DNA from: Paramacrobiotus metropolitanus
Lineage: Eukaryota > Tardigrada > Eutardigrada > Parachela > Macrobiotidae
Assembly (NCBI RefSeq): GCF_019649055.1
Contig: NW_026570262.1
Span: 372,001-436,000 of the forward strand
DNA length: 64,000 nt
Direction: 5' to 3'
Shown here: piece by piece, positions 11,501-51,190 of the stretch
Layout of the letters: each line of letters opens with the position of its first letter
Numbering within the stretch: position 1 is the first letter of the stretch
Made by a program: the position numbers and the translations under genes
The notes under the pieces: generated by a model
Seen by the model: the letters and a program-made list of their open reading frames with translations, nothing else
Told to the model about the DNA's origin: nothing
Databases searched by the model: none

Positions 11501-11903
11501 AAACACTAACTGTACTGTGAAATAATAATACAGATGAAGTCGTTCAGGTACGCACACTGATCTCCAGGTGAGCCAGTTTATTGGCTTGGATAACGGCCGA
11601 CGCATTGTACACCAGGAATCTATCGTCGCCTTTCAGAAAGGAAGGGGCGAAAGGCAGCATATACGAGTAGTCAGGACCGTAACTACCACCATAATTAGAA
11701 CTCCCATACGACGTGGAAAGCCTTCCTATCAGGGCCAGATCAATGCGCACGTCCGAGGTGGCATTTTGCACCAGAATGGATACGGGAAATGAACTGTTAG
11801 ACCGCGCGCTGTTCAATCCAAACACCACATAATCAAGGCTTTTTACACTGCCGGTCGTTAAAACCAGCATAAGAGCTGGGAGAGAGATATGCAGAAACTG
11901 CAT
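5599..11903 (-). CDS. TEP/alpha-2-macroglobulin family protein A1, thioester intact
   Basis: Secreted thioester-containing (CD109/TEP-like) protein. I reconstruct 17 exons, all phase-consistent: 11903-11556, 11390-11106, 11031-10980, 10908-10811, 10747-10477, 10392-10302, 10230-10098, 10037-9189, 9126-8932, 8849-8688, 8621-8547, 8375-8065, 7992-7875, 7811-6477, 6409-6090, 5999-5834, 5754-5599; 1,654 aa. The start is the ATG of MQFLHISLPALMLVLTTG, a signal peptide shared by A2 and A3. Macroglobulin domains fill residues ~25-1000, including MPGYPYTIKATITDWDGRP (MG4-like) and VPDAITTWRISAFSLS (MG7-like). The thioester domain carries GCGEQ at ~1166-1170; a C-terminal receptor-binding-like region follows. 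Gly/Tyr-rich inserts lie at ~280-312, ~552-596 and ~893-910, with RKKR at ~318-321 and ~597-600. In family members the Cys-Gln thioester bonds covalently to targets after cleavage. Divergent partner of B1. Confidence 0.88.
7290..7304 (-). other. Thioester motif GCGEQ (A1)
   Basis: The minus-strand codons GGG TGT GGT GAA CAG followed by AAC ATG give the canonical alpha-2-macroglobulin/C3/TEP thioester motif GCGEQNM, preceded by LDRLIRLPY. It is the only intact thioester site among the six copies in the window. Confidence 0.95.
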
Positions 11904-23781: not shown

Positions 23782-26700
23782 TTAGGATGATTTTAAAACC
23801 TTCAGCTGGAATAGAACAATTTTTGCTGGTTACGGGCGTTTAGGTTTACATGATCACAAATACGCTGACCTTAAACGGCTCAGTGGAGACTGTTAGTCCG
23901 CTGGTATTGCTCAGACTGAACGCCGTGATTTGCCAAGTCGTGATTGCATCTGGCACTTTACGCTCCAATTTAACATCGCCGTTTGCGCTACCGAAAACAA
24001 TATATCCATTACTGCATCACAGTCATTATTGAAGCGAGCCACATTCAAGTGGCCGACTTACTCGGCCCAAGCGGTCTCGAAGAGGAAACTCTGACGGAAG
24101 TCTTTCCGTGTCTGAGCCGATTGCTGCAATCCGGAGTCAAACGGAGACGCTGACCCGTAACCGCTTCCATACGATGCCGACGAATACCCCGCATAGGAAT
24201 CGTAGGATCCTCCTCCACTACCAAATCCGAATCCTTGGTTGTTTCCGAAACTGGACGAATAGTAATCTTGGGCTCGTGGAATGGATGTCGTGGACAGCTT
24301 TGTGTTCGTCAGAAGAAATTGCTGTACCCGACCAGAATCGATTGCTTTCTGCGATAGGCAAACAGCTTTCGTTGCAAAGTATTAACAGTTCGTTTAAGGT
24401 AAATGCTTTGTGGTGTATAAAGTGCACCAAGTCGCGGTATACCGTAAAGTAGTCTTCAACGGACAGCATATAACTCGGCTGCATTCTTTGTTGAGGTTTC
24501 GGCTTGGTATCCAACTAAAAAATCCCCAGAAAAGGAGAATCGGAAGGTCTGATGTAATTTAATTTTAAAAGATACATACAACATTTTGAGTAATGTCGTT
24601 GCCGGATTTCAGCAGCAGCATGCTTTCGTCCACTGCAAGAAATGCCATGAACGCAGAAGGACTACTGTGAGCTCGTATGGAGATCTCCGCTCCCGGTTCC
24701 GCATAAGATAAACCATTTTTTGCTTGCGCAGATAGCGTGACCTATTCATCACTGTAATGTAGTATCTTAAACTGCAAATAATATCAGTGTACACCTACAT
24801 TTTCTTGTGTGTCGTTGGCAACGGAAAGTGCCTTAATATTCCCCACCAGTTCACCGTCACTTCCCACGTAGTACGCAATGAGTCGTCCCGACGCACCCAT
24901 CGCAGTGACAATCGGCACGGATACTCTAACGTATTGACCGGATCGTGAAATCGAATCACTCCATAGGAAGCTGGCATTAGAACTTGACAGCACCTAAACA
25001 AAACCACATGACATAGCTACAGATTGCACCCCGAATTGCTTTGTATGAAAACCATATTCACTGGAGCCATACCAGGATGTGAATATTTTGTTCGGTCCTT
25101 GTCGTAGTATTAATAGCGAACTCTGCCAATTTGTCAGCCCGCAGATCGCTCGTGACCTGACTGATCTCTAGGAAACTACCGCTCGGGGACTGTTTGGCAA
25201 AGAGAATTATCGCTTGCGATGTTGCTTCGTAAAACACTGCTATAGTCATGGCTGCTGCGTTCTTCCAAGTCGGAAAAGTGGCATTAATGGTCCCATCAAC
25301 GGCCACTTCCAATAAGTGCTGATCAGGAAGAGGGGAACAGCCCACACCGCCGGGACTGTAGGAGTAGCCCGATCCAGTCATACCGAAGCCAAAATTGCGG
25401 TTATAACCGTAACCGCCACCACCGTAGCTGCTACTGCCATAGCTGCCACCGTACGGCGACGGGTACGTCTGCCCCAGGCAACGTACAGTGCCGTGCGATG
25501 ATATAGCCGTTGAGTGGCCTTCAGAATAAGAATAACCCATCACACCCACTAAGACTTTTTTGGTGCTGGGAGGTGGTGGACGACCGTCCCAGCCGGTGAG
25601 GGTAGCCTCGAAGAAGTACGGATACCCAGGCATGAACGTCTTTGTGTCCGCTTGGTGAATGATATTGTACGCTTGGGTTTTGACCGATACAGTAGCGGGC
25701 GTAGCGTTCCACTGCTGACCAGTGGCGGCTTCCGTGAAATTTGCTCGAATAATTATTTTTGATGCATCCGTGAGGTTAGAAAGGAATTGCGCCGGGACGG
25801 AGATCGATGCCGTACCGTTTTTGTCCTGTAAATTTCAACAGCTTTCTTTATCTGTTGGTCACCTTTACCAAAGCTGGTCATACCGCATAAATAGTCTGGT
25901 TCCACACCGGATCATACAGATCCTTCTCCTCGAAGCTTCCATAATTTCCATAACCGCTTACGCGGCGCGGGCGAAGCACCGTTACTTCGAAAGAGCCCTT
26001 GGCAGGTTCTTTAAATGTGTAACTATAAAATTTAATATCCATTGAAGGAGAGACTCACAGGTTTATGAAAAACATGTGGAATTAGGCAGCTTCCATACTT
26101 AGCCACGACCTGGAAACGAAAATCCTCCTGCATCTGTGGGACGATGTAACTTCTCGATGTTACAATTCTGACATCAAATCGCGGCAGAACTGTCAAAAAT
26201 TGAAGCATTTTTTTTCAAGAGCTGTCACTGGAAACGTTAATGTGGTTCAGTATCCATGGAGTATAACTGTAGATACCGAATTCCTCAACGGAGAAGTCTT
26301 TACTGGCCAACAGCCCCAATACTGAATACTGTCTACTGGCATCGTAACCGGCGTTGCAACCTTTGCCATCGTCGTCAATGCTAGAGGCACTTGGATCTGA
26401 ATCACTCGGGCTTTCAGTAGTGCCCAGACCACCACCGAAACCACCACCGTTGATACCAAAGCTGAAACCGATGTATCTTTTCTTTCTGCCATAACCACCG
26501 CCCCCACCGTAACCGCCATCACCATAAGCGCCACTACCGTAGCTGCTACTGCTTCCTCCATAACTACCACCATTGCTAGAATAGCTAGACGTGGCGTAGC
26601 TGGAGGTGACGTAGTTGGGGCAAATAACTTTGACCTACAAGCAGAAAAAAATATGCTTTTCTACAAGACCACTACGCTCTTCTGTTGGTTTCAGTACGCT

Positions 26701-27776
26701 TGTGTTTGCGCGGACCACCCGCACTGTCCAGCTGCCTAGCAGCGGATCCGATGACAATGGCATTTCCCCCGAAAAGTATCCGACAACTGCCGAACAAATT
26801 ACATAAAAATCGATAGTTTAGTAGGGCATAGAAATCAATTCTGTTTGACTGTCAAACCTTGCGAGTCATTTGCGTTACTGTTCATTTGCACAATATTGCG
26901 TTGTGGATCCTGTATAAATATCAAGAATGTGTGAGGCTTTTAATTTTCTGAACGTAAAGGTTTTAAAAAATCAATAATTTCACCAGAATCTGCACGTTAA
27001 AGGGCACGAACAGCGGCCGTAGTTGGCCGTCCACCGATTCCACCGACACGACGCGGAAGCGCACAGTGTCGTTAGCTCTGTACAGCGGCTGATCAGTCTG
27101 TATGAAAACAACGATTGCGCTTGGTTTTCGGTTTTGTCTCTGGCCTCGTCGTCTCGCTGTTGTCGATACTAATGGGGGAAAACCCGGTACGGAACGAGTC
27201 TGATGAGTCCGATCCGTTAAGGACAAACATCAAAGTTTCTTTAGACACTTTGGAAAGGTCACCCACCTAGCGTGGAACAAAACTAGGATAATAGTACGGA
27301 TTTTGCAACTGCTGAAGTAAAATAAGGTACCAAAGTACTGTACTGAAATACTTAATAACTCTTTTGCAAATACAAGTACAGTACTAAATGCACAGTTATA
27401 CAAAAATAGAAGCGAAGATTATTTAGGTACGAACATCGATCTCCAGGTGAGCCAGTTTATTGGCGTGGATGACGGCCGATGCCTCGAACACCGACCATCT
27501 GTCGCCTTTCAAGGACGTGTAAGGCAGTAGATACGAGTATTCAGCACCGTAAGGACCACCATAATTAGAACTCTCGTACGATGTGGCAGGGGGCCTTCCA
27601 ATCAGCGCCATATCGATGCGCACATCCGATGTGGCGTTGAGCACCAGAATGGATACGGGAAACGAACTGTTAGACCGCGCGCTGTTCACTCCAAACATCA
27701 CATATTCAAGGCTTTTTACACTGCCGGTCGTTAAAACCAGCATCAGAGTTGGGAGAGAAATATACACAAATTGCAT
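23782..27776 (-). pseudogene. TEP-like copy A2: frameshifted and truncated before the thioester domain
   Basis: Minus-strand paralogue of A1. Exons: 27776-27435, 27266-26984, 26909-26858, 26786-26698, 26634-26277, 26189-26099, 26022-25884, 25825-25073, 24993-24799, 24741-24580, 24514-24443, 24348-24062, 23987-23870, and a remnant 23805-23782. Exon 2 is 283 nt against 285 in A1, A3, B1 and B2; the two missing bases lie just before the FIQTDQPLY segment and cause an early stop. The last exon begins like exon 14 of the other copies (LKVLKSS) and stops after seven codons. The rest of exon 14, and so the thioester and C-terminal domains, are gone. Exon 5 encodes a Gly/Ser/Tyr-rich insert with RKKR, while the second RKKR site (exon 8) is missing. 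The signal peptide MQFVYISLPTLMLVLTTG is kept. Confidence 0.75.
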
Positions 27777-28749
27777 GATGGACAACATAGAATACACCGA
27801 CAAAAGAGAAACGGGCTACCGGCTGCGGTTTGGATTGACCGTTACAGCGTTATCACCATGCAGAAGCGTGTTGTGAAACTGCACCATACACGCTATAAAT
27901 AGGTCTGACAAATCACTGCGTAATATTCTCATAACAGCTAAAATTACGGGGCAAAATCGCGCCGAAGCTCTCTTCGAGTAGCCGGCAAAACATACATATT
28001 AGCAAGTTAAATTTCAATTGTCAAATGCTAGGAACAACACACTGTATGTGACCGCTCATCAAGATATCACATCCGATAACGTTTACGCTAGTTAAACAGA
28101 AGCTACCATCAATAAAACCGCCTGCCGTGTAAAATGCCGCATGGAAGATGTTGGCCGGTTTTTCAAACGTGCTGTAAGAGTGAACAGTTGTAAGAAGTAT
28201 CACAACAAATGGTAGTCCAATGGCACAGAAATATGAACCGGACATGAGCATGCACATGAACCGGACATAGTGCTATCGTTGTTCGAGGACATCGAATGGA
28301 CGTGCAAAGATCAGTCACCAACGCTAGGTTTCCTGGTTAAAATAAAAGCCCTCGGGCCGATCCTGTTTAGCGCATTTGCCGCATTCGCGTCTTCTTCTCG
28401 CACTCGTATGTACCGGTACATGTTACAAAGTGCATAAACCGTAAACAAGAAGCTGTGCTGTGCTGGCTTTACTCAGCATTTTCGTTCACTGAATATCGCG
28501 TTCATTAACCTGTACCGATCTGACAACGATAGCCGGAGCGCAGTTATTTACTGCAATCAGCAACAACAGTACGAATAGCTACAAAACTTGATAGAAACTG
28601 TTGCAAAATTTGTCGACTGTTCACCGGTGCACTTACGTGCTAAACTTTTAGAATTCTGCACCTTTTGAAGCACTGGATTTCTGACGGCAAGCACTACTCA
28701 TGATTTTAGTAATCTTTGTTTCGTGATTGCTTTTTGTATAGCCGACACA
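27777..28749. promoter_or_regulatory. A2/B2 bidirectional intergenic region
   Basis: 973 bp between divergent start codons, the most compact of the three. It contains the conserved block at 28347-28374, the GTTACAAAG word near 28419, and the sequence CATTAACCTGTACC that marks the empty site of the insertion in A1/B1. No open frame with support. Confidence 0.55.
28347..28374. promoter_or_regulatory. Conserved promoter block, A2/B2
   Basis: Second copy of the AGCCCTCGGGC-x-GATCCTG block described at 14776-14803, about 380 bp upstream of the B2 start. Confidence 0.45.
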
Positions 28750-34700: not shown

Positions 34701-35470
34701 TCGATTCAAATCGATATCACGAATGGCCTTCAGAAGAGCGATATGGCGATCTCGCCGGAAACATCAATGGTTGTGCATTCCTCACAATTTGAACAGAAGC
34801 CTACGGACATCGCGATTCATGCCAGAGGAAGCGGGATAGCTGTCGCTTACATAAGCTGGACATACAATGTACTGCAACCAGTCGAGGGCTGGGCGTTTGA
34901 CCTCAACGTCACTCTATCCCGCACCGGATCCGCCAAGGCTCACCGTCTGAACATCTGCACCAGGTTAGCCGTTTTGAAGCCGGTTGTATGAGCGTATGTG
35001 TTGTAAGAATTTTTGCTTGGATTATAAATCAACGTTTAGCACTTACTCAACAGATACTGGAAAGATGGCGCAAGCAGCCTGACGCTTATGGAGGTCAGTG
35101 CGCTGTCCGGTTACCAGTTTGACGAAGAAGAGGTCAAGCAGCTTCCGCCAGCAGTTAAATCACCGCGAAAAAGCGAGTTGGATAATGAGGGCAGCAAACT
35201 AAATTTGTATTATGAGGAGGTAAGTGCTAACAAGTAAGAATGCTTTTTGCGGTCTGCTGAACGTGCTCAGTCGGGATAAAATGTCAAAGACCAAGATACT
35301 TAGCGAGTGAACTGACTCCGCGCTTTTTTTGCTTGTAGATGACGCCGACTGCCATCTGCTTCAGTTTGACCATGCATCAGACTCACAAAGTGGAGAATTT
35401 GAAAGCCCAAAGCGTAGTAATTTATGATTATTACAATCCCAAAGATCGACGAACGGTTTTCTATTCATAA
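28750..35470 (+). CDS. TEP-like protein B2, complete, thioester residues replaced
   Basis: Complete secreted macroglobulin/TEP-family gene: 17 phase-consistent exons (28750-29055, 29181-29465, 29544-29595, 29675-29772, 30071-30119, 30247-30337, 30398-30518, 30601-31440, 31511-31708, 31967-32128, 32209-32277, 32574-32902, 33046-33163, 33236-34573, 34641-34963, 35054-35219, 35339-35470), 1,558 aa. The start is ATG of MNCRLIVGLSLLAGAANA (signal peptide). Macroglobulin, thioester-like and C-terminal domains are all present. At 33743-33757 the thioester site reads GGGEP (residues ~1076-1080), so both Cys and Gln are lost and no thioester can form. RKKR lies at ~509-512. The large Gly/Tyr insert of exon 5 in A genes is absent (49-nt exon). 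It resembles TEPs and complement-like proteins that work without a thioester, perhaps in binding or as inhibitors; role inferred. Confidence 0.87.
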
Positions 35471-35705
35471 ATGACTTCCAAAGCTTACCATATACAGATA
35501 CCTACATAACGTAGCACTGGCATTTATGTACCTGATACGGCAGCGATACACCCATTCTCCTGGGTGTGAATAACGATACAAAATCGGTATTATATTTATT
35601 GCGACATATGCCTTGGTGCATAATACGTGAATATTCAATCATCTTAAAATGAGATGTTTTGCCCGATTCATAAGAACATAGCTGTATTTGGCGATATCTT
35701 ACCAG

Positions 35706-35711
35706 AATAAA
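35706..35711 (+). terminator. Poly(A) signal candidate for B2
   Basis: AATAAA about 240 bp after the B2 stop in the same context (GATATCTTACCAGAATAAA) as after B1, at nearly the same distance. Confidence 0.45.
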
Positions 35712-35962
35712 AATAGCGAAGCGAAACCTGTGCACTGACATTAATTTTACATGACCACCCACCATGATTGAAATCTAAACTTGTGCACCTACACTTTAGT
35801 AATTTTACAATAGTTTTCCGCTGGTATACGACAAAGGCAAATTGCAGTGGAATCAGTCTCCCCTTGAAAAATTATCCGGAATTTTCGGAGAATCGAATTT
35901 TCAATGATTTGTACAAATTGTATCGGTTCCTTCGATAGGAGTACGCAAAAGATGGGTGTTAA

Positions 35963-36905
35963 AATTAACATTATGGCTGTGTGCACGGGTAAACACGGGT
36001 GTTGGCTGCGTGCACGGGTGGCCTTATTGGGTCCGCACGGGTGCCGGCTGCGTGCACGGAGTTTGGGAGCGGGTGTTGGCTGTGGGCACGGGATTTCTGC
36101 ACGGGCGTTCGCTGCGTGCACGGGTAAATTATTTAATTTTTTAATTTAAATTTAAATGTATATTCTAATTATAATTTTTTTACATAATTACTACTTATGG
36201 AAACTTACTCACTTTACCCATAATTTTTCAACGAAGTACAGTTACAGTAAGTGTAGGACCACTGTAGGTACCTGTACAATACCTAAAGTAAGTACTGCAA
36301 AATTTCCTGTACGTAGCAAGTACTATGTTAACAGCTACTGCTTGTTAGTGCGATATGCGATATCATGAAGTACTTGTAGGTCACAGTAAGAAAAGTCGAA
36401 GACGTGAGAATTGTGTAATATTTTCCATGAGAAAATGTGTAATACGGTACAGCTCGTGGAAGGGCCACTTTCGAGCAGGGTCTGATGCGAACACGTAGTT
36501 GCTTATAAAGCATGCAAATGACACCATTCCCACTTGCATCAAGCCGTGTACAAAAACTCTGAGCCGTAAAACAAAGCATCTGTAAGTTGTGTAACTATTT
36601 CTAAATTATGGCACATGAAAAAAATATGTCAGAAACCGGTCCAAAAACCTGTTATGGTTGAATAAGACCTGGAAACCTATAAATGTTACGACCAAAATTC
36701 GAAAATCATAAAAGAGTTAAAAATTGAAAAAGCCGTGTACAAAGCCAACACCCGTGCGTACCCAAAAAGGTCACCCGTGCACACAGCCAATACCCGTATC
36801 CGAACTCCGTGCCCGCAACCCAACACCCGTGGAGACACCCGTGCACGCAGCCAACACCCGTGTTTCCCCGTGCACGCAGCATCAACCTAAAATTAATGAA
36901 ATAAA
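35963..36905. mobile_element. Non-autonomous DNA transposon, ~155-bp terminal inverted repeats
   Basis: GC-rich arms at about 35972-36126 and 36731-36885 are inverted copies of each other. The outer ~44 bp are almost identical (starting GCTGYGTGCACGGG) and the rest are about 75-80% alike by eye. Each arm is itself made of repeats of a GTGCACGGGTGTTGGCTGC unit. The interior is AT-rich and non-coding. TTAA flanks both ends (35959-35962 and 36906-36909), as in piggyBac-type insertion, but the exact ends are uncertain. The paralogous spacer at about 23155-23190 lacks the element, so it inserted after the units duplicated. Confidence 0.75.
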
Positions 36906-37370
36906 TTAAAAGTTTGACGAAATCTCCGGTTAGAATAATTTATGCGAAAGCGAATCAGTATTGATTTTCCACGTGAACAAGCTGTAACATCCTTAGAACG
37001 GCTATACTCTCAGTCTCTCACTGATGCAAATGACGTAGAATTAACGCGCTATGCGTAGACTGCGCGAATTACATACGTGTTATGACGTATTAGATATCTG
37101 TTCTTATTTAATGCATTTGATCGCTAATTCCATCAGGGATTCTGGTTTCCATCGCTAATTTTTTGCGTTAACATGATCTAAATGAAAAATTCCTTCCAGT
37201 TAACATGAGATGGAACAGTCCCCAAAACACTCTGAGCATTACCACGTTGAATCTCAAGACTTAAACGTTGAAAAAGAAAACAGGTAGAGCGGCTTTCTTC
37301 AATTAAATGTGTGAGGTTGTTGCTATCTGAAAGGTCGTGTGACTCTAGGTTAGAAGGAAGTTCATTCATA

Positions 37371-37400
37371 TCTCGTTCTGTTCTGTTCTGTTCTGTTTGC
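37371..37400. repeat. TTCTG pentanucleotide microsatellite
   Basis: About four to five tandem TTCTG units within the extra segment of the B2-A3 spacer. Confidence 0.7.
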
Positions 37401-38388
37401 GTTGTTTGCTGGGTGATTAAACATTTAGGAAGTTTCTGAGTGCTTCGGTTTCGGTAACTTTCGTTAGGCACGGCAATCCGCTTGTACCTAGCGGAAGTAG
37501 GCAGTTGTACCACTTACGTAGTCCAGAGCATATTCCCATTCCACCGAATGAGTAGGTTTGATCATCTGTGCGGTTATCGCGGTGCGACTTCCGCATAGCA
37601 TGTCAGTATATTATGTATGAGAATGTTCATATTGCTACGCTTGAGTTTCACTTGCTTAATGACGTTTTGTGACAGCTAAAAAATGTGGATATCACATCGG
37701 AGATGGATTAGGTTTTCTTTAGTGTTCAGACAGCATCCTCTTTGCTGTGACCTTTGCCGAGCCCAATCGCTGCAAACAGGAGAGTAAGTTTAAGTTGGGA
37801 CGTTAACCGCTCACTTATGGTTAGTTTGATTGTATTAAGTACGAGCATGCCCTTAAACCTATATAACGTTAAGAGCATAACCATCTTAAGAAATAGCACG
37901 AATCACTAAGAACACAAAACAAACGAAACCCAAAACACAGGAAATAGAAGAAACGTATCAAGTGCACGAAGCACTTGAAGCTCACGTGAAACCTGTGAAA
38001 CATATGTAACCCTTCAAATATATGAAACATTTATGCATTAAGTTCAAATTTACGATACCAAACAAGCAAGGATACACGAAGCAATCAAACAACGAATTAT
38101 CAAGCTCAAAGCCCACAACAAGTCATGAATCACGAAACGTTTACTGTTTCACCGGTTTCCGAATGCTACATCATGTTTCAGTGTTTCCCTAATTCATGCT
38201 TATCGTTTTGTGTTTCATGCCACATACTCGATACGAGATACTTCATGTTAAATGTTTCTGTGATGTAGCAACGCCAGCTGTAGTATGTTCAGCTCTGTTT
38301 TGTGTCGGTCAGTACGGATGTGAGGTCACGACAGTTCCGTCTCTTGAGTCTCTAAAATTCGCGTAACTGTCCAACTCGTCCAATGTTT

Positions 38389-41300
38389 TATGATGGTCGG
38401 AAAACTTTCAACTGGAATAGAACAATTTTTGCTGATTACCGGCGTTTAGGTTTACGTGATCACGAATACGCTGACCTTGACCGGCTCCGAAGTGACCGTT
38501 AGCCCGCTGGTATTGCTCAGACTGAACGCCGAGATTCGCCAGGTCGTGATGGCATCTGGCACTTTACGCTCCAATTCAACATCGCCGTTTGCGCTACCGA
38601 AAACAATATCCATCACTGCATCACAGTAATTATTAGAGCGAGCCACATTAAAATTGCTGACTTACTCGGCCCAAGCGGTCTCGAAGAGGAAACTTTGACG
38701 AAAGTCTCTGCGTGTCTGAGCCGGTTGCTGTAATCCGGAATCAAACGGAGACGCTGGCCCGTCACCTCTTCCATACGATGCCGACGAATACCCCGCATAG
38801 GAATCGTATGAACCTCCTCCACTACCAAATCCGGATCCTTGATTGTATCCAGAATTGGACGAATAGTAATATTGGGCGCTTGGAACGGATGTCGTGGACA
38901 GCTTTGTGTTCGTCAGAAGAAATTGCTGTACCCGCCCAGAATCGATGGCTTTCTGCGATTGGCAAAAATCAGTTATTATTTCTATTCACAGTTCGTTCTG
39001 GGTAAATTCGTTTTGGTGTCTAAAGTGCAAAGTCGCGGTTTACCGTAAAGTAGTCTTCAACGGACTGCATATAACTCAGCTGCATTTTTTGTTGCGGTTT
39101 CGGCTTAGTATCCAACTAAAAAATCCCCAGAATAAGAGACTCGGAAAATCTGGTGTGATTTACTTTTAACAGATACGTACAACATTTTGAGTAATATCGT
39201 TGCCAGATTTCTGCAGCAAAAGGCTTTCGTCCATTGCAAGAAATGCAATGAACGCAGAAGGACTGCTGTGAGCTCGTATGGAGATCTCCGCTCCCGGTTC
39301 CGCATATGGTAAACCGCTCTTTGCTTGTACTGATAGCATGACCTTAATATCAATGTACGTTAGTGCTGTAATGTGTGAATAACGTAAGTGTGCTCCTACA
39401 TTTTTCGTCGTATCGTTGAGAACCGAAAACGCCTTAATATTCCCAACGAGTTCACCGTCACTTGCCACATAGTACGCAATGAGTCGTCCGGATGCACTCA
39501 TCGCAGCGGTAATTGGTACGGATATGTTAATAAATTGACCGGGTCTTAAAATTGAATCACTCCATAAGAAACTTGCATTGGAACTTGAAAGAACCTAAGA
39601 TGATCACAAATGCTATTACTCGCCAGGTGGAACCTTTACTGTAGCCGCTAGATGAAAGTCACCACAGAGTCTGGTGTACGGAAAACATCGCACACGCTGC
39701 TGTAACGTGTGCGCTTTCCGGCATGGGGCAAAAAGCGGCCGGATCTGAAATATGTGCCATTTCATCTAGCGGCTACAGTACTGTTTCGGAAGCTTACCAC
39801 GATGTGAATAGGTTGATCGGTCCGCGTCGTAGTGTTAACAGCAAACTCGGCCACTTTGTCAACCTGAAGATCGTTCGAAACCTGACTGATCTCTAGGAAA
39901 CTGCCGCTCGGAGATTGTTTACCAAAGAGTATTAAGGTTTCCGATGTTCCTTGGTAATACACTATTACCGCCGCTGCAGTCGCGTTCTTTGGAGTCGGCA
40001 AACTGGCACCAATACTCCCATCAACGTCCACTTCCACAAACATTAGACCAGGGAAGGGATGACAGTCGGAACCATCAGAACTAGAGCTGTAGGAGCTGAC
40101 CGGTCCATGGATTCCAAAGCCGGTACTTAGATTCTTTTTGCCGTAACCACCGCCACCGTGACCACCGCCACCGAAACCACCGCCGTTGGTCTCAACACCG
40201 TAAGCACCACCACGATAACTACTATCATAAGCGTCCCAGTGAGGCGGTGGGTATATTTTCCCCCGGCAACGTACAGTGTCCGACGATGATACGCGCTTTG
40301 CGTGACCTTCGAAGTAAAAGAAGCCCATTAATCCAGTTATGGCTTTCTTAGTGCTGGGAGGTGGCGGACGCCCATCCCAATCGGTGATGGTAGCTTTGAG
40401 CGTGTACGGATATCCAGGGATGAACGTCTTTGCGTCGTCCTGGAATCGAATATTGTATGCTTTGGTTTTGGCCGATACTGTTGCGGGAACAGCATTCCAC
40501 TTCTGACCGGTTACGGTTTCCGTGAAATTAACTCGAATGGTTATTTTTGATTCATCCGTGAGATTGGAAAGGAATTGCGCCGGGACGGAAATCGACGCTG
40601 TTCCGTTGTTGTCCTACAATAAGTAGTGATTAAGTACTCAAGCTGTTTCCGCTCTCTGCTGCTTTGCTTTCAACGGCTGAAAAGTTCAACATACCGCAGA
40701 AATTGTCTGGTTCCACATCGGGTCAAATACATCGTAGCGTGCATAACCTTCTTCACGATGCGAGCGAAGTACCCCCACATCGAAAGTGCCCCTGGCAGGT
40801 TGTCCAGATGCATTACTATAAAATTTAATATCCATTTGAAAAGAGGCACTATTTATTAAAATTTTTGAAGTTTGGCAGTTTTCGTACTTAGCCACGACCT
40901 GGAAACGGAAATTTTCCTCCATCCGTGGGACGATGTAGGTCTTTGATGTTATTATTCTGACATCAAACCGCGGCACATCTGACCAAAATTGACACATTTG
41001 TTAAGGGTTATCACTTGACACGTTAAATACTTAATGAATAGAATGTAGTGGAACTACGGTTACCGAATGCTTCAACGGAGAAGTCTTTACTGGCCAACAC
41101 CGTATCCTGGTATTCAACAGGGTCGCAAATACTTTGATCGTGGTCACTGTTACGTTTCTTTATGTCATCATCATTGTAACCGTTACCATCCCAACCACCA
41201 CTGCTTTCATAACTACTCCCGTAGGGTCTGGGAGTGGTGTAGCCCAGGCAATTGGCATTGATCTGCAAGCACAAAAAAGACTTTTTCACATCTGATCACC

Positions 41301-42412
41301 ACGCTTTATCGGTTGATTTAGACCTACGCTCTTGTTTGTGCGGACCACCCGCACTGTCCAACTGCCTAGCAGCGGATCCGACGACAATGGCATTTCCCCA
41401 GAAAAGTATCCGACAACTGTCAAAACAAATTAGTATCATTAGAACTAGATTGTGACATTATTTCTGTTGGATTGTCAAACCTTGGGAGTCATCTGCGTTA
41501 CTGTTCAGTTGCACATTATTGCGTTGAGGATCCTATATAAATACAAAGACGTTTAGAACTCCTGGATGTTTAGAACTTCTGGATGTACTGAATGATTTTA
41601 GAAAAGCAAAAGTTTTACCAGAATCTGCACATTAAAGGGCACGAACACAGGTCGCAGATGGCCGTCCACCGATTCCACCGATACGACTCGGAAGCGCACA
41701 GTGTCGTTAGCCTTGTACAGCGGCTGATCAGTCTGTATGAAAACAACCGGTCTGCGCTTGGTTTTCGCTTTCTTCGTTACTGTCGTGGTCTCGTTGTTTT
41801 CGATTTTAATTGGTGAAAACCCGGTGCGAAACGAGTCCGACGGGTCAGATCCGTTAAGGACAAACACCATAGGTTCCTTAACCATTGCGGAAAGGTCACC
41901 CACCTGATGCAAAACAAAACTCCATAATGGTTCGGTGTAAATGCTCTACTAAATACGGTACATAATCCTGTACTGTAATAATGCATTTAAAATTAATAGT
42001 AATTTGACAACCATTAGATAATGTGCATCTTGCGCTGTTACATAACAACGTAGGCAAAGTTCGTTCTGGTACGCACGTCGATCTCCAGGTGAGCCAGTTT
42101 ATTGGCCTGGATGACGGCCGATGCATTGAATACCAGGAACCGGTCGTCGCCTTTCAATGAAGCGGACGCGTAAAGCAGCATCTCGCCGGAATCGTAGTTA
42201 GAGTAAAGCCCGTACGATGTGGCAGGGGGCCTTCCAATCAGCGCCATATCGATGCGCACTTCCGATGTGGCGTTGAGCACCAGAATGGATACGGGAAACA
42301 AACTGTTAGACCGCGCGCTGTTCAATCCAAACACCACATACTGAATGCCGGTTGCACTGCCGGCTGTTGAAACCCACATCAGAGTTGGGAGAAAAATATG
42401 CAAAAACTGCAT
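38389..42412 (-). CDS. TEP-like protein A3, open but lacking the thioester domain
   Basis: Minus-strand A copy. All junctions keep phase: 42412-42077, 41903-41619, 41532-41481, 41416-41328, 41262-41064, 40978-40888, 40815-40695, 40613-39798, 39594-39400, 39342-39181, 39115-39044, 38952-38666, 38593-38476, and a short last exon 38412-38389 encoding LKVFRPS then TAA. Product ~948 aa: signal peptide (MQFLHIFLPTLMWVSTAG), macroglobulin domains, bait-like Gly/Tyr segment, and the start of the MG7-like domain (VPDAITTWRISAFSLS). The thioester domain and C-terminus are absent. A2 stops at the same place, so the truncation predates their duplication, yet A3 has stayed open over ~2.8 kb of coding sequence. 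Exon 5 has IKKR; the exon-8 site is degraded to KKN. It may be a functional short secreted form or a young pseudogene; expression data would decide. Confidence 0.7.
39639..39778. mobile_element. 140-bp MITE in an A3 intron
   Basis: Perfect 19-bp terminal inverted repeats (CTGTAGCCGCTAGATGAAA at the left, its complement at the right) flanked by TA on both sides, as for Tc1/mariner-type elements. An inner hairpin (GCACACG...CGTGTGC) lies near the middle. The equivalent A1 intron (9127-9188) has no such sequence, giving an empty-site control. It is too short to code for anything. Confidence 0.85.
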
Positions 42413-43617
42413 GATGCCAACCATCGAACCCGGTGGCAAGAGAAAAACGGTTTACCGGCCACAAATTAGGCGAACTGTGTAGTATTACCGCCATGCATCG
42501 ATATGTTATGAAATCGTTGCATGCACGATGTAAATTCAATAACTGCATGAGTCAGAGCGCACTAAAACTAGAACTTGAAACACTGCGCAGTAATATCGAG
42601 CTGAAGCTTCTCTTTGAACAGCCAGAATGACAGCCGGCAAACTTGCACATTACAGTTCAGTTGCATTGTCAGATGCTGGGAACAACCGGCAACCACCGTT
42701 CATCATGGTTTCGGTTTGCGTTAGTTAGAAAGCAGCTGAAAAAGGAAAATTTGCTAGCAAAACCAGGTAAGGTTAATAATCGGTGAGAGCTAACCAATCA
42801 AAACACCGAGTAAAACCGGCGTTCTTCTTTCGTTGATGACTGTCTGTGTAATAACATTCGACACCGGCAATGAACCCGTTAGAAAGCCGGAGGATACGGA
42901 TGTGATGCTCAGATGCGCCGGCTTATGCAGCCTCGCTCGGCCATTGCAAGATCCGCATCTGCGAATAGAATACGACAATTTTTCCGAAGTAATGAATAAA
43001 AAGTGCGCAAAAAAAGTCAAGGGTCTGTTGCTTTTGCGTGTTGCAATATTCGCAATGATTTCTGCGGTTTTCGCAGTTCCGCAAATGGTTGTCCGTTAAC
43101 AAACAAATACATATCTGAGAAGCGGATACGAGCACGGAGCACATGCAAGGATCTGCCGCTGTTCAGAAACATCGGATAGACATGCATCTTCAATCACCAA
43201 AGCTAGAGCAGATTTTTAATGCTTTCCTTGTTACAATAACACCGTAACAGCCCTCGGGCCGATCCTGCTTAGTGCAGTGCCGCATCACGCGTCTTCTTGT
43301 ACTGTACGGGCACGTGTTACAAAGCGCATATAACAAGAAGCAAGAATAAGCCGTACTCAGAATTCGGTTGGCTAAATTGCGCGTCCGTTAACCTGTACCG
43401 GTTTTTGCGACGGTGTAGGTTAGCTTAGCTGCCTATTGCAATCAGCAACAACGGTAGGAGCAGCTTCAAACTTCAAAGCAGGATAGAAACTTTTAAAGCT
43501 TTGTTGACCAGTGCACTCCCGGACCAAAGTTTGAGTAATTGCACCATTTGGAGCAGTGGATTAAGGCAGTGCAGTTTTGGGATTTCTGTTCCGGATTTGT
43601 TTTCTTTAGCTGACACT
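42413..43617. promoter_or_regulatory. A3/B3 bidirectional intergenic region
   Basis: 1.2 kb between the A3 start and the site where the B3 start codon used to be. It shares the GAGAGCTAACCAATCAAAAC stretch with A1/B1 and the 43249-43276 block and GTTACAAAG word with both other pairs. No gene inside. Confidence 0.5.
43249..43276. promoter_or_regulatory. Conserved promoter block, A3/B3
   Basis: Third copy of the AGCCCTCGGGC-x-GATCCTG block, with CTTAGTGCA in place of TTTAGCGCA. It lies about 345 bp upstream of the former B3 start. Confidence 0.45.
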
Positions 43618-43982
43618 AAGCACTGCCGGCTCGTCATTGGGCTATCATTGCTCGCCGGCGCTGCAAATGCGCTGAATTATGTGATTTTCGGCTTGAACAC
43701 TGTACGATCTAACAGTGTATTTCCGGTGTCCATTTTGGCTGTCAACACTACATCCGATGTGCACGTTCACTTGACAATAACCGGTTACTGTCAGTTTTGG
43801 TCACCGTTGAATGTCACGTCCGGCGATCCGTATCGCCGCCCTGGCTGTGATCCCGGGAACAGCAGTTTGTCGTTTGCAACGTCTGCTGTCCTCCACGCCA
43901 ACGTCCTCACGCGGGTCGAGATAAAAGTGCGTAAGGCGAAAACTACTTCTATAAAATTTACATGAAGATCGCAACATACAAG

Positions 43983-44456
43983 CCTGTCGACAAATTGAGC
44001 ATTTGTAAATTCAGCGAGCATTTCAAATTTACTGGCTACGCGTAAATCCACGGCGTGCCGCTCCACACTGCTTAAACACGTAACAAGTGTCTGGGTGGCT
44101 GGTGGCACTTCAGATATTTTAATGAGAATAATCGTAAGTACTTTACCTTTTAACCCGCGGGGGGGATAGAGATTTTGGTTGCTTTTTTAATGTTTAAATT
44201 TTAACTGTGATGTAGTTTGCCCGCGCTTGCCTTTTTTGTTATTTGATGGCTGTTGCCTATTAATACGGTACAAATCGTAACTGTCTGGCGAAATGTGGCT
44301 AAAAACGGTCGCTGCAGTAATGGACAATCTGACTGCCAAGCGCAGTTACGCCGCTTACGCGCTGCGATAACCGCAGTGCAGTGGCCATTATTCAAGCGCC
44401 AACTTCGCGCTAATATCGCTCTACCTGTACCTTTACATGCTCAATTTGTCGACAGG
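43983..44456. mobile_element. Probable MITE in B3 intron 1, 20-bp inverted repeat ends
   Basis: A perfect 20-bp inverted repeat (CCTGTCGACAAATTGAGCAT at 43983-44002 and its complement at 44437-44456) encloses about 430 bp of non-coding DNA. This intron is about 970 bp, against 125 bp in B2. The inverted repeat may be longer but imperfect, and target duplications are not clear. Confidence 0.5.
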
Positions 44457-46567
44457 ATTGCACATGTGCAGATAAGCAGGTTTTGATGCATCTAAGAAAA
44501 TGCATCGAAATGCGCTTTGACTGGAGCGCAGCTATCAGTTGCTGAATGGTCACACCAGCGGTAGAATTTCGTTGTACAGATATAATGCTAATCTGGGGTG
44601 TTAGGGCTCGCACAACATTACTGATTTGCTTTCCATATGTCTGTAGTATATGCAGCAGTGGGCCGGCACAGTGGCACCCTTTTATTAGTTGAATCGAAGG
44701 ACCTTTGCTGCAATCCGGTCAATAACTAACACAGCAATTTAGAAATTTTGATGTATAACAAGAAGTACTGATTGGTCAACGTATAATATGTATCTTATTC
44801 TGCCACACTGTAGGTATTTACGGTTGCACCCAAAGAACATAATAATAGCATCCTTGTAACTGTGGAAATAAAGTAACCGGGCGCTCCTTCCACAGGTAGG
44901 TGACTTCTCGAGTCTTGCAACGCCAGTCGTATGGTTAAACGTCGGTGTTTTCGACCCGTCAGACTGGACAAACTCGTTCACGGGTTATGTGACACCAGTG
45001 GCGTTAGACAACACAACCACAGGAACGAAGAATGCGCCACCGAATCGCAGTGGCGAACCGCTGTTCCAGATACAAATGGACCAGCCATACTATAAAGCCG
45101 AAAATGTGGTGCGATTTCGTGTTTTGACAGTGGAATTTGTGGATGACAAACTACAGCCGCTGTTTATTCCCTTTACCGTTCAAATTTTGGTAGGTTCACG
45201 GTTGACTTTAAGCTTGTGTTGTACATGTGCCGGTAACCATACAGCTTACTGACACTTTTTATTGGCCACAGGATACACAGCGCAATGTGGTGAAGGAGTT
45301 CATTAATGCCAACAATTCCGAAGGTTAGCATCGAAAAAGTTACAAATGTTTCGCCAGAGCTATGACCTAAAAAACTTTAAGCTGCATTATTACAGTAGCG
45401 GGTTATTTTGCTGGAGAGATGCCGCTGTCGTCGGATCCTTTGAACGGCACATGGACGATTCGCGTAGTGAATTCTTCCGTTAATCAAGAAACGGTAAATG
45501 TTTTAGCAATGTTAAAGTTCGCTTTAGAAACTTGCCGAATGCAGCAGACTGTAGAGGGATTACGATGCCGAAACAGATCAGCAAAACGCCGGTTTGACTA
45601 CAGGAAGTTGTTTTCAGTTTACAAATGTTGCTGTAGTAGTTACAAATTTACAGTCGATTCACAGTTTGAGCAGCGATATACAAGTTTACGTAAACAACTC
45701 TGATCCTGGCTGTTGTAGATGACCGAGACACATAACTCGTGTTATTATGCCTACAACTGTGCACAGGAGACGAAGTTCGTTCTAGCCAGCAAAGATTTTT
45801 CCGTTTTGGAATTCGGTAATTAGTAAAGCATAAATCATAGTACAATTAAGTAATTCGAAAGACATTGCTGTATTTACTGGCTCCATAATGTAAATAGTGG
45901 ATCCTGTTGTGACGGACTGATTAATTTTATGTTATAAGTTTGTAACCATGATTACAGTGACTCCAAGATTAGATGTCAGAATTGCTACTAACAAAACCTA
46001 CATCACATCGATTGACAAGGAAATGCAGTTTCAAGTCACGGTGAAGTACGTTCAAAAACCAGTTAAGATTTTTTTCACCGCAACACTGCGTAATATATGA
46101 TCTCGTGTGTGCAGGTACACAACTGGAGAAGCTGTCAACGGGATCTTTGACATTGCCGCGGTTAATAGATTGCATGGCTACAAAACGACAGATACGACAC
46201 TATTACGCAAGTCGATATCGACGGTAACGCCGCTACCTTACTGGGTATTAATACTTAACAAAGTAAATCTTTTTGACGTGTTATCGGAATGGTTGCAGAA
46301 TAACAACGGAACAGTAACTGTTTCTGTTCCATTAAAAGGAGCATTAAACGAGACATTGCCGCATTACTATAACGAGGTGACCATTCAAGCAAATTTTACT
46401 GAATCCGCTACCGGTGTCATGAGAAGCGCCACACCGGTGGTCATACCCGTACTTACTGGACCGTATCATGCTAAATTCGAATCAGATACCGATACGTTTA
46501 TTCCCGGATATCCATACCTACTGAAGGCTTCCATACTCGACAACCACGGACGTCCACCACCTCCCAC

Positions 46568-46653
46568 CGGTCGCAAAGCACACATTATTACATCGGCCAA
46601 TGTCTCCCATCGGTCGCAAAGCACACATTTCCACATCGGCCAATGTCTCGGCT
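46568..46653 (+). repeat. 43-bp tandem duplication in B3 exon 8
   Basis: CGGTCGCAAAGCACACATT occurs at 46568 and again 43 bp later at 46611, with matching following sequence. B2 has one copy. Since 43 is not a multiple of three the reading frame is lost; removing one copy restores an exon of 822 nt, divisible by three. Confidence 0.85.
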
Positions 46654-49600
46654 GGTGTGTGGGAGATTGTTCCACTCCACAGTGATGCGGCCTGCTTGGT
46701 GCAACCATTTTGGGGTCTCAACAGTTATAGCTTCACCGGTTGGAGTTGGCAGGCAGCTGTCTTCGGTCGTCAGCGCCAAAATTGGGGTTTCGGCTTTGGA
46801 ATTAACGCAGAAGGCTTTGGTGGTGGCATCTCGAACAATAATGGCAGAAAGAAGCGCGATCTGGGTCCTTTCGTGCAACACAGTTACAGCGGCTGTCACT
46901 ATCTCCCGACTATCCTAACAGCCGATGTGGCCGCCGATGGGACACTGAATATCAGCATACCAACGTCAAAATCAGCCGATGTCATGAATATTTTGGTTTC
47001 TTACGATTTTCAAACATCACAGAGCAAGACGGTCTTCGCAAAGCAGTCCGTCAGTGGTAGTTTCTTAGATATTTCCCCGGTTTCTGCCGATCTGGTTGCC
47101 GGTGCGGTGGCCGAGTTTGCTATTGCCACATCGACGCGGCTGAACGAGCCTGTTCATATCGTGGTAAGTACCTCAGTCATATTTATACGCCACTCGTTCA
47201 CAGCACTCTGCCCTAGATAAGAAGTCTTTCTCGGTTTTATTTGTGTAGGTATTTTCTAGCTCGAATGCCAGTTTCTTATGGACTGACTCGCTTTCCACGC
47301 CTGGGCAACGGTTACTGTCTACGTGCCGCTTGCGGAGGCGATGGGCCCCGCTGGGCGCCTTATTGCGTATTATGTCAGAGAGGACGGGGAAATCGTTGGC
47401 AGTATCATACCACTGCGAATTAAAATGACCTTTCATTAGAAAAGGTAGATGAAACTTCTTTCCAACAAATAACAATTCCATTAAACATAGATATCTTCCA
47501 AAACGTCCACGTACGTAAGACGCAAAGCATAAGTGTAGGCGTATAAAAAATTTTGAAATAGCCGGACGCACGGTACTTGCTTCCTGGTATCAGAGCAGCA
47601 TTACTTTTAAAATTAAAAGAGCTACGGCAGTCGGGCTTGTGAAGTCAGGATAACCAAACCGAAGTCCCCGTCGTCACCGTATTATTTCCTTAAACAGGTG
47701 ACTCTATCTGTAACATCCAAGAACGGTCAATCATCAGCTCAACCTGGCGAAAAGGTTACCGTGAAAGCAAAGACTGCTCCATTTTCCATGGTCGTCTTTT
47801 TGGCCAGGGAGGACAGACTGTCGTTGCTTAAGCCAGACAACGATATACCTCCTTCCACTGTAAGCCGCTTCGATATCAATAATGATTATTCTCTATTACC
47901 ACATTTGACTACGGATTTCTATGGATTCCAATAATCTATTCGTAGTTTTTTTATGCAGACCGGAAAACCAAAAAGAGAATGGAACACAAAGCCGGTCGGC
48001 TATCGTCGGGTTTCCATGGCCGATAATTTTAATGTACGCATGTATTTTAGGTATTTGTCTACTGCTGGTATCTGTACAAGTACAGTTAGCTGAAATTTTA
48101 TGTATTCTTCTTCAACTAAAATTCAAATAGAGGGTTGCTGTTGCATCTGCAAAATTAGGCACTCCCTAAACAATAAAGCAAATAATTATGGAAAAAAGAC
48201 TGAATTATGTACCCTTTGCAGAAACCAGTTGATTCCAGCAACATGCAATATTTTATTCTGACCAACACCAAAGGTTCCGCGACCGATCCAGATATCGAAA
48301 AGTTATTATGGCCGTACCCTGGATACAGCAGCTGTATTTGTCCCAGAGCAGAAATTCGTTACGGGTTTCGCATCAACAATGATCCTAAAGAGTCGTATTG
48401 CTCATACTACGGTTAAGACGAGCGAGATAAAAGTTCGGATGCCGATGGAACGGAAGCGACATCGTTCTCCGACGATTCCACAACGCTGCTCCCTACGTCG
48501 ACGCGAAAGCCGATTCCACAGAGTTTCCTTTTTGAAACTGCTGTGGCAGAGTGAGTGCACATTTTGTCCTCAAAATTAACGTGTTGATCTTGCATTCCGA
48601 TTATCGTACATAGGGTAACATACCGTACCACTTAAGCGAATTATTCGCACTTCTGTTCTGGAGTTATTTTAATTACGGACACAATTTTAAAATTAAAAAT
48701 GTTTGAAATATCGTTGTTTGCTTACTTACGCGATGTTGGCTCACTAGCGCAAACGGGGATGTCGTTGTGGAGCGCAGAGTGCCCGATACACTGACAACAT
48801 GGCATATCTGGGCGTTTAGCTTGAACAAGACTGGCGGATTAAATGCGTCGACACCTGCCAAGGTTGACAGAAAAACTAATAATATTATCAATTTTAACCA
48901 GTACCGCCAAACATGATTAAACTGCCTGCTTTGATGTTTCAGCTTAAGGTTTTCCAACCATTACTTGCCTCTCTGGATCTACCGTACAGCGTTATCCACA
49001 ACGAAAATTTCACCGCCGAAGTCGTCATTTCTAACTTTATGCCGCAGAAGCAAGATGTGGCAGTCAATTTATCCATTCGCAGTCCGGATAACACAATGAT
49101 GACCTTTACAAAGAGCATCATTTCCAAGCCGAATGATAGGATAACGGCGGCATTTAAGATCATCCCGGAGCAAATTGGTGACTGGGAACTCGCGGTCACA
49201 GTTAAATCTGCACTCGCCTCATATCACCTGAACAAAACTTTGCTCGTCAAACCAGGAGGCGTCACGCAGTTCTACAGCCAGCCAATCCTGATCGATCTCA
49301 ACAAATCCAATACATTTAATACGGTCATCCAGTTACCGATGGATCCAGCTGATAGGGTCACAGGGTCCGAGAAAGTAATAGTTGACGTTGTCGGTGACAT
49401 TCTCGGCGTCTCCCTCCATAATCTGGATAAACTGATTAGGTTGCCGACTGGAGGCGGCGAGCCGAACATGGCGATAGTAGCGTCCAGCGTTGCAGTGCTC
49501 AAATATCTGAGAAATACGAATAAAACATCACATCAAAAGGAGAAGAACTTGGCAAGCAACATTCAGTTGGGTTATCAACAAGCGCTGACGTATCTCCGCA

Positions 49601-51190
49601 ATGATAATTCGAATTTGTTCAGCATGCGGGGACCAACTGACACAAATTCGTCTACATGGTTGACTGCTTATTTCACCAGAGTTTTTGCCGAGACCTCGCA
49701 ACGGCTTCCCAAAAGCAGCACTAAAGTTATCGAGAAAGCGATTCAGTTCCTCATTGACCAGCAAAACGACGATGGTTCGTTTCGCGAAAGCGGAAAAATT
49801 ATCGACAGTTACGTCGAAAGCGGTGATTCCAAACAAGTGTTCTTGACAGCATTTACGGTTCTATCGTTTACGGAATATATCAAGACAGGGAAGGCTGGCA
49901 TCGAGAAGTTGAACGCTTCGCTCCAGAAAGCAGTGGCATATTTGGAATCGCAAGTGGACAGTGCCAAAAGCGACTCGTACGCTTCAGCAATAACAGCGCA
50001 CGCATTGGCACAAGCTAACAGTTCGAAGAGCTTGGATGCGCTGAACCTGTTGAAAGATTTAACGGTCACCGATGCTTCAACTGTGCACTGGAAGACCCCT
50101 GCGTCAGTCGAGGATGAAACGGAAAATGCCGGTTATTTGTACGCCACACACCCCATAGATGTCGAAGCCACCGCGTATGCGTTACTGGCGCACTTGGCCA
50201 ATGGAAACTGGAACACGTCGCTAAAAATCGCTTCCTGGTTGATTTCAAAACAAAATGCTGAAGGCGGATTCTTTTCGACAGCGGTACGTATAACTGTTTT
50301 CGCATTTTATGATATCTACTATGCAAGCTCAACCCCACCGGTTTTTGTAGGATACAGTAGTCGCGATAGAAGCGTTAGCCAAATTTGCCCAGTTCATCAC
50401 CGATGCCCCAGCGATTCAAATCGATCTCATGGATGGCATTCAAAAGAGGGATGTGACGATCTCGCCGGACACAGCGATGGCCGTTCGTTCCTTGGAATTT
50501 GCACAGAAGCCCACGGATATTGCGATTCATGCCAGAGGAAGCGGGATGGCTGTCGCTTACGTAAGCTGGACATGCAACGTACAGTGACCGATAGAGGGCT
50601 GGACATTTGACCTCAACGCCACTTTATCCCGTACCGGATCCACCAGAGCTAATCGTCTAAACATTTGCACCAGGTGAGTCGTACTGATGCCGGTTGTAAA
50701 ACGCATGTGCTTTACAAATTTTTGCCTGGATTATAAATCAAAGTGGAGCGACTTATTCAACAGATATTGGAAAGATGGCACAAGCAGCCTGGCGCTTGTG
50801 GAGGTCAGTGCGCTGCCCGGTTACCAGTTTGACGAAGAAGAGATCAAACAGCTTTCGCCAGTTGTTAACCCAGCCAGCCAGCCGCCAGCCAGCTGCGGAA
50901 AAGCCAGCTGGACAATAAAGGCAGCCAGCTGAATTTGTATTTTGACGAGGTAAGTTATAAGAATGCTTGTGCGGATGGTTAAAACTTAAAAGTACTCAAC
51001 CAGGATTAGATGCATATGCCGATAATCGAGATACTTCACGACTTACAGGTATATGATCGGTCTGTTTGTGCTTGTAGATGACTTCGACTGCCATTTGCTT
51101 CAATTTGACGATGTACCAGACGTACAAAGTGGAGAATTTGAAAAACCAAAGCATTGTAATTTACGTGATAGACGAACGGTTTTCTATAAC

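What the first reader, a model, noticed from the sequence alone, without database searches (positions are those of the whole stretch)
38389..42412. A3: a TEP that ends before the thioester domain yet stays open
A3 keeps phase and no stop through 13 exons, then stops seven codons into exon 14 (LKVFRPS). A2 stops at the same site (LKVLKSS), so the truncation happened before they separated. Since then A3 has kept over 2.8 kb of coding sequence while A2 took a 2-bp deletion. A secreted protein with macroglobulin and bait-like parts but no thioester or C-terminal domain could be a decoy, an inhibitor or a matrix protein. I do not know of a described class like this; that is from memory, not a search.
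Basis: partly seen in the sequence, partly recalled or inferred. Interest (0 to 1): 0.75.

Follow-up and report, generated by a model that had tools for sequence, protein, structure and literature searches.

The report
Immune protein missing its active half
In what is probably a tardigrade genome, one copy of a complement-like immune gene lost the half that grips targets at a protein-domain border, yet the remaining half has stayed open under selection, so a stripped-down version of this immune protein may have a job of its own.

Summary
A3 is an open 14-exon gene (42412-38388, minus strand, 948 aa, 13 of 13 introns GT-AG) that stops seven codons into exon 14. A2 stops at the same site and has a 2-bp exon-2 deletion. 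Alignment to solved structures puts A3's end at the MG6/MG7 border: it keeps the static "base arm" (MG1-MG6 with bait region) and lacks the "swing arm" (MG7, CUB, thioester domain, MG8). Differences inside that segment are post-truncation and show purifying selection (exons 10-13 omega 0.345, p=1.4e-4; A3 branch 0.21, p=0.003), not detectably weaker than in full-length relatives; exons 1-13 as a whole look relaxed (0.52 against 0.18 for A1). At 0.10 neutral changes per site about nine stops would be expected; none is seen. A second open gene, on contig C62 (MG1-MG7, 902 aa), also lacks the thioester half. I read A3 as a maintained base-arm-only macroglobulin, likely a non-covalent decoy or competitor. 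No transcript data were available.

The parts
42077..42412 (-). A3 exon 1: signal peptide (by eye) and MG1 (by position only, no domain hit)
41619..41903 (-). A3 exon 2: end of MG1 (by position) and start of MG2 (FIQTDQPLYKANDTVRFRVV)
   Evidence: PF01835
41481..41532 (-). A3 exon 3 (MG2)
41328..41416 (-). A3 exon 4 (MG2 end)
41064..41262 (-). A3 exon 5: loop with two Cys between MG2 and MG3; the RKKR of A1 is IKKR here
40888..40978 (-). A3 exon 6 (MG3, weak alignment to A2M)
40695..40815 (-). A3 exon 7 (MG3)
39798..40613 (-). A3 exon 8 (MG3 end to MG5 start, by alignment and position); Gly-rich loop with two Cys, RKKR of A1 lost
39400..39594 (-). A3 exon 9 (A2M_BRD region)
   Evidence: PF07703
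39181..39342 (-). A3 exon 10 (end of A2M_BRD match, first half of MG6)
39044..39115 (-). A3 exon 11 (linker, by position)
38666..38952 (-). A3 exon 12 (bait-like loop, then start of second half of MG6)
   Evidence: A2-A3 omega in the loop about 1 on 54 codons
38476..38593 (-). A3 exon 13 (MG6 end, PF00207 first half)
38388..38411 (-). A3 exon 14, truncated: LKVFRPS then TAA, at the MG6/MG7 border
35467..38387 (-). A3 3' flank, homologous in blocks to 22586-23781 after A2; holds inserts that A2's flank lacks; AGTAAA at 38145 where A2 has AATAAA at 23635
23782..27776 (-). A2: sister truncated gene, 14 exons, 2-bp deletion in exon 2
5599..11903 (-). A1: full-length paralogue, 17 exons, 1654 aa, thioester GCGEQN
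43429..50932 (+). B3, the head-to-head neighbour of A3 (TED motif GGGEPN); approximate bounds from ORFs

Best explanation
A3 is a working gene for a base-arm-only macroglobulin: signal peptide, MG1-MG6 ring and bait region, ending where MG7 would begin. It probably arose when the A gene of a tandem A-B unit lost exons 14-17 by a break early in exon 14; the cut end was later shared between A2 and A3 by recombination. Having no swing arm it should not trap a protease by conformational change, bind covalently, or expose MG8. Most likely it acts by non-covalent binding: it offers the same MG-ring surface and bait as A1, and so competes for A1's partners or activating protease, or absorbs foreign proteases. 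Shown: gene structure, domain border, constraint after truncation. Inferred: origin, secretion, folding, role. I put about 0.7 on a maintained coding gene and 0.3 on the decoy/competitor role within that.
For: Open 14-exon frame with GT-AG at 13 of 13 introns. A3 residues 946-947 align with A2M 765, CD109 729 and C4 831, and A1's exon 14 starts at the same point; a review calls MG1-MG6 the static base arm and MG7 with CUB, TED and RBD the swing arm (PMC13069473, passages). A3 keeps four Cys at the places of the four in A1's first 996 residues. Post-truncation selection: A2-A3 exons 10-13 omega 0.345 [0.21-0.58], p=1.4e-4, 213 codons; exons 11-13 0.355, p=0.0018, 159 codons; on 151 filtered codons the A3 branch 0.205, p=0.0033, and the truncated pair 0.233 vs background 0.190, p=0.61. 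Flank K2P 0.196 on alignable blocks is close to dS 0.197 in that segment. A second open TED-less gene lies on C62.
Against: No RNA or protein evidence. Over exons 1-13 A3's omega is 0.52 against 0.18 for A1, and the truncated pair is less constrained than the rest (0.456 vs 0.302, p=0.0097). A3 lost both RKKR motifs and has no AATAAA in the 1.9 kb after its stop. A2 carries a frameshift and A4 is a pseudogene, so the family turns over. MG1 has no domain hit of its own. The low omega in exons 10-13 would also fit splicing to A1's thioester exons.
Confidence: 0.6

Rival explanations
1. A3 is a young pseudogene: function was lost at or after truncation and no lesion has struck yet.
For: A3 omega over exons 1-13 is 0.52; A2 has a frameshift; A4 has stops and a 1-nt gap; no AATAAA was found in the 1.9 kb after A3's stop.
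Against: Since the shared 3' segment split (about 0.1 per lineage) about 9 stops were expected and none occurred, P 1e-4; omega in the post-truncation segment is well below 1 for both lineages. A very recent loss cannot be excluded: P of no stop is 0.065 at 0.03 substitutions per site.
Confidence: 0.17
2. Gene conversion from A1 keeps A3 open without a function of its own.
For: The cluster is clearly mosaic; intron 12 is unusually alike in A1, A2 and A3 (0.11-0.17).
Against: A1-A3 dS is 0.40 over exons 1-13 and 12 of 13 introns differ by 0.25-0.48 between A1 and A3, so no recent large tract from A1 is visible; the segment next to the truncation is A2-like, not A1-like.
Confidence: 0.08
3. A3 (and A2) are alternative N-terminal modules that splice over about 31 kb into A1's thioester exons, like a cluster of variable modules with one constant end.
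For: All three A genes of the window lie on one strand with A1 last; exon 13 ends and A1's exon 14 begins in the same phase; constraint in exons 10-13 is not detectably relaxed.
Against: Needs a splice of about 31 kb across B2, A2 and B1, while the modelled introns of A1-A3 are at most 203 bp; A3 has its own exon-14 acceptor and stop. No thioester-domain match other than A1's lies on that strand in this window.
Confidence: 0.07
4. Assembly or consensus error created the truncation.
For: If this is the tardigrade assembly I suspect, it came from nanopore plus Illumina reads (PMC8277472, passages), and A2's 2-bp deletion could be such an error.
Against: Two copies with different flanking inserts show the same junction, with 17% divergence over 988 aligned flank sites.
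Confidence: 0.02

Closest known systems
CD109 / alpha-2-macroglobulin / insect TEP1 (TEP-A2M superfamily)
   Same: MG core in the same order, bait-like loop before the second half of MG6, motif PDAITTWRISAFSLS at the end of MG6
   Different: No MG7, CUB, thioester domain or MG8; cannot form a thioester or make the swing-arm movement
MCR proteins (Drosophila MCR/Tep VI and arthropod relatives)
   Same: Natural TEP-family members without a working thioester (PMC4833078, passages)
   Different: MCR proteins lack the thioester motif; A3 lacks the whole domain and everything after it. The B genes beside A3 are nearer to this state (GGGEPN)
Biomphalaria glabrata C3-3
   Same: Reported with a truncated complement_C3_C4_C5 interval and no thioester region (PMC9363628, passages)
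   Different: Part of that domain remains; the authors relate it to C5; I saw nothing there of a cut at MG6/MG7
N-terminal (beta) chain of complement C3 or cleaved TEP1
   Same: Holds the MG core up to part of MG6; in TEP1 the two chains interleave within MG6 (PMC3464232, passages); C3 beta chains hit
   Different: A chain of a full protein, not a separate gene product; A3 holds both halves of MG6
C62 gene of this genome (G000:C62:212522-217507, minus)
   Same: Open macroglobulin gene without CUB, TED, MG8
   Different: Keeps MG7; the only other genome match found for it is 28% identical, so probably an independent loss

Membership tests
Thioester-containing protein (TEP) | Thioester domain with GCGEQ motif | tested here: not met
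   CDS ends before it; no PF07678 match on the A3 strand between 38388 and A1
Thioester-containing protein (TEP) | MG-domain core with A2M family motifs | tested here: met
   PF01835 5e-14, PF07703 5e-17, PF00207 7e-10; PDB matches to CD109 and A2M. MG1 and MG4 by position only
Thioester-containing protein (TEP) | Descent from a full-length TEP | tested here: met
   Exon structure and phases shared with A1
Thioester-containing protein (TEP) | CUB and MG8 domains | tested here: not met
   CDS ends at MG6; PF07677 matches listed in this window fall in A1, B1 and B2 only
Alpha-2-macroglobulin-type protease trap | Bait region plus mobile MG7-CUB-TED-RBD arm | tested here: not met
   Bait-like loop present in exon 12, arm absent
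MCR (thioester-less TEP) | Full domain order with TED lacking the Cys | tested here: not met
   TED absent altogether
Secreted protein | Cleavable signal peptide | not tested
   Hydrophobic N-terminus seen by eye only
Pseudogene | Neutral evolution since the lesion | tested here: not met
   omega 0.205 on the A3 branch in the post-truncation segment, p=0.0033, 151 codons

The most novel reading that the evidence does not exclude
Base-arm-only macroglobulins are a functional protein class: in one animal genome the thioester half was lost at a domain border at least twice (A2/A3 after MG6, C62 after MG7) and the remaining MG ring was kept, which would show that the ring has a binding or regulatory job independent of thioester chemistry and protease trapping.
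Probability: 0.4. Interest if true: 0.75.

Novelty: new variant of a known kind. Interest (0 to 1): 0.58.

Why it matters
The TEP/complement family is explained almost wholly by its thioester and its moving arm. A gene that keeps the static ring under selection after losing both would show that the ring itself has a function, and would offer a natural minimal MG1-MG6 construct for finding its partners. It also shows how tandem TEP arrays can make new protein forms by recombination at an exon that coincides with a domain border.

Tried and rejected
Rejected: that the truncation predates the whole A2/A3 separation. Rejected: that the missing exons survive nearby; C42:460957-461790 (L008) is a decayed C-terminal remnant that looks nearer to the B genes, judged by eye, and C60:630161-630571 (L009) is an A-like exon 16-17 fragment on another contig. 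Rejected: C14 (L001) and C84 (L002) as further truncated genes; C14 has an in-frame stop and keeps MG7 and MG8 pieces, C84 is a frameshifted exon 12-13 fragment. A4 (L004, C42:480487-486000) is a full-length pseudogene: three stops in its exon 14 and a 1-nt gap in exon 10. Led nowhere: rRNA search to name the organism (searches gave no answer); passages of PMC4346834 and PMC5989330.

Limits of the numbers: intron divergences come from forced alignments of short introns and run high; flank divergence is from alignable blocks only and runs low. The codon set left out exon 5 and every codon with a gap, or within four codons of a gap, in any of the four genes: 669 of 996 A1 codons kept. The bait-loop limits were set by eye. 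Paper lists seen: 19 of 19, 12 of 12, 8 of 8, 5 of 7, 1 of 1, 8 of 28, 8 of 8,115, none found. Genome searches list matches up to E 0.001 and score only the best candidates.

Full report
WHAT IS THERE. The window holds three head-to-head pairs of complement-like genes: A genes on the minus strand (A1 5599-11903, A2 23782-27776, A3 38388-42412) and B genes on the plus strand (B1 about 15601-22583, B2 about 28669-35300, B3 about 43429-50932; bounds of the B genes from ORFs only). A3 joins into 14 exons with GT-AG at 13 of 13 introns and phases equal to A1's through exon 13; the CDS is 2847 nt and encodes 948 aa ending LKVFRPS. A1 continues through exons 14-17 to 1654 aa with GCGEQN.

WHERE IT ENDS. 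A3 residues 946-947 align with A2M 765, CD109 729 and C4 831, and A1's exon 14 starts at the same structural point (its residue 2 = CD109 725, A2M 761). From recall, C3's MG6/MG7 border is near mature residue 806, which fits. A review describes MG1-MG6 as the static base arm and MG7 with CUB, TED and RBD as the swing arm (PMC13069473, passages). A3 is therefore the base arm with its bait region. Pfam finds MG2, A2M_BRD and the first half of A2M in it; MG1 and MG4 are placed by position only. A3 has four cysteines at the places of the four in A1's first 996 residues, in two loops; both RKKR motifs of A1 (residues 318 and 597) are gone.

HOW THE TRUNCATION AROSE. A1 reads TTCCAACCATTTTTCGTAACG where A3 reads TTCCGACCATCATAAAACATT; homology to A1 stops within exon 14. 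The DNA after the stop is shared by A2 and A3 in blocks up to the 3' ends of B1 and B2 (988 aligned sites, 17% different). It was not found downstream of A1 or B3 (blastn), and the genome search with it listed, outside this cluster, one 74-base match on C150 (that search skips very common words). A3's copy has further inserts, one with inverted repeats at 35974-36880. The mechanism of loss is inferred.

THE TRUNCATED END IS SHARED BY RECOMBINATION. Introns 1-9 differ between A2 and A3 by 0.29-0.46, about as much as they differ from A1 (0.25-0.48 for A3; 0.12-0.48 for A2, with introns 4 and 7 low at 0.21 and 0.12). Introns 10-13 differ between A2 and A3 by 0.06-0.23, while A1 differs from them by 0.40-0.46, except intron 12, which is alike in all three. 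Of 281 informative sites with A4 as outgroup, 66 of 198 on the 5' side of the best breakpoint (A1 coordinate 8621) and 73 of 83 on the 3' side group A2 with A3; 0 of 5000 shuffles reach this contrast. So the truncated 3' end is younger than the separation of the 5' exons.

SELECTION AFTER TRUNCATION. A2-A3 differences inside the shared segment should all have arisen after truncation. Over exons 10-13 (213 codons, none dropped) dN 0.068, dS 0.197, omega 0.345 [0.21-0.58], p=1.4e-4 against 1. Exon 10 lies at the breakpoint, so I repeated it with exons 11-13 alone: 159 codons, omega 0.355 [0.20-0.63], p=0.0018; without the bait loop (105 codons) 0.235, p=6.6e-4. The bait loop alone gives 1.04 on 54 codons, with an interval too wide to use. 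On 151 filtered codons of exons 10-13 with A1 and A4 as outgroups: A3 0.205 (p=0.0033), A2 0.265 (p=0.017), the pair 0.233 against 0.190 elsewhere (p=0.61): no detectable relaxation. Over all 13 exons (669 of 996 codons kept) A3 is 0.52 (p=2.8e-4 against 1), A2 0.39, A4 0.38, A1 0.18, and the truncated pair is less constrained than the rest (0.456 vs 0.302, p=0.0097). So exons 1-9 look relaxed, though those branches also include time before truncation. A neutral A3 would have gained about 9 stops in 0.10 substitutions per site (3.2% of random changes make a stop).

CONTROLS IN THE SAME FAMILY. A4 (L004) has three stops in exon 14 and a 1-nt gap in exon 10; C14 (L001), C84 (L002) and C42:460957-461790 (L008) are decayed pieces. 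Decay is thus visible in other members. A4's omega of 0.38 shows that a present pseudogene can still carry a low omega from its functional past, which is why the post-truncation segment is the test that counts. A2, apart from its 2-bp deletion, has no stop before the shared terminal one.

A SECOND CASE. On contig C62 a 15-exon gene (L003 9507-4522, minus; G000:C62:217507-212522) encodes 902 aa, 14 of 14 introns GT-AG in my model, ending after MG7 with AATAAA 299 nt downstream. It matches TEP1 (8e-23) and CD109 (9e-21). The TED and MG8 matches listed on C62 lie at 740,552-742,730, over 500 kb away. The only other place listed for this protein in the genome is 28% identical, on C67. One caution: the stop overlaps a possible donor (TTA|GTAACG), so a diverged downstream exon cannot be fully excluded. 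Selection on this gene was not tested.

ORGANISM. G000 has 169,799,020 bases, and its contig C1 is 4,484,719 long. The Paramacrobiotus sp. TYO assembly is reported as 170,483,395 with a longest scaffold of 4,484,941 (PMC8277472, passages). I infer a Paramacrobiotus tardigrade; this is not proven. Searches for 'thioester-containing protein' or 'macroglobulin' with 'tardigrade' listed no paper on TEP genes there.

HOW IT MAY WORK. Without a swing arm A3 should not trap or covalently bind anything. The remaining options are non-covalent: competing with A1 for partners or for the activating protease, or offering bait to foreign proteases. Loss of both RKKR motifs suggests a single chain. This is inference. 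The chief computational blind spot is splicing to A1's thioester exons, which keeps phase and would predict the same constraint in exons 10-13; a splice of about 31 kb across three genes, where the modelled introns are at most 203 bp, makes it unlikely.

NOVELTY. Searches with terms for truncated or domain-lacking TEPs led to thioester-motif losses (MCR, PMC4833078, passages) and one shortened C3-3 in a snail (PMC9363628, passages), but no gene product reduced to the MG ring among the titles, abstract starts and passages I saw. Only the open-licence PMC library was searched.

Noticed in passing
G000:C62:212522-217507 (L003 4522-9507, minus): Another open macroglobulin gene, MG1-MG7, with no CUB, thioester or MG8 domain; a Kazal-type ORF lies downstream on the same strand (L003 3015-3260).
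   Followed up: partly
15601-22583, 28669-35300, 43429-50932: B genes head-to-head with the A genes; their thioester motif reads GFCEPN (B1) or GGGEPN (B2, B3), so they probably form no thioester.
   Followed up: no
43560-43760: B3 has AAG where B1 and B2 have the start ATG, and no Met upstream in the same open frame; B3 may be start-less or use another first exon.
   Followed up: no
39637-39780: An insert of about 144 bp with 19-bp terminal inverted repeats (TACTGTAGCCGCTAGATGA) in A3 intron 8, absent from A1 and A2; looks like a small DNA transposon.
   Followed up: no
35974-36880: Inserted DNA with inverted repeats between B2 and A3, absent from the B1-A2 gap.
   Followed up: no
41064-41262 and 39798-40613 with A1 counterparts: Two Gly/Tyr-rich loops, each between two Cys, with RKKR in A1; both motifs are lost in A3. 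A possible double-cleavage scheme in this TEP subfamily.
   Followed up: partly
L009 4161-4571 (G000:C60:630161-630571): Orphan A-like C-terminal exons 16-17; no other A1-like exon was found in the 8 kb read.
   Followed up: no
G000:C42:378477-556333: A long TEP cluster, with PF07678 matches beyond the window up to 556333; two of these matches carry stops inside.
   Followed up: partly
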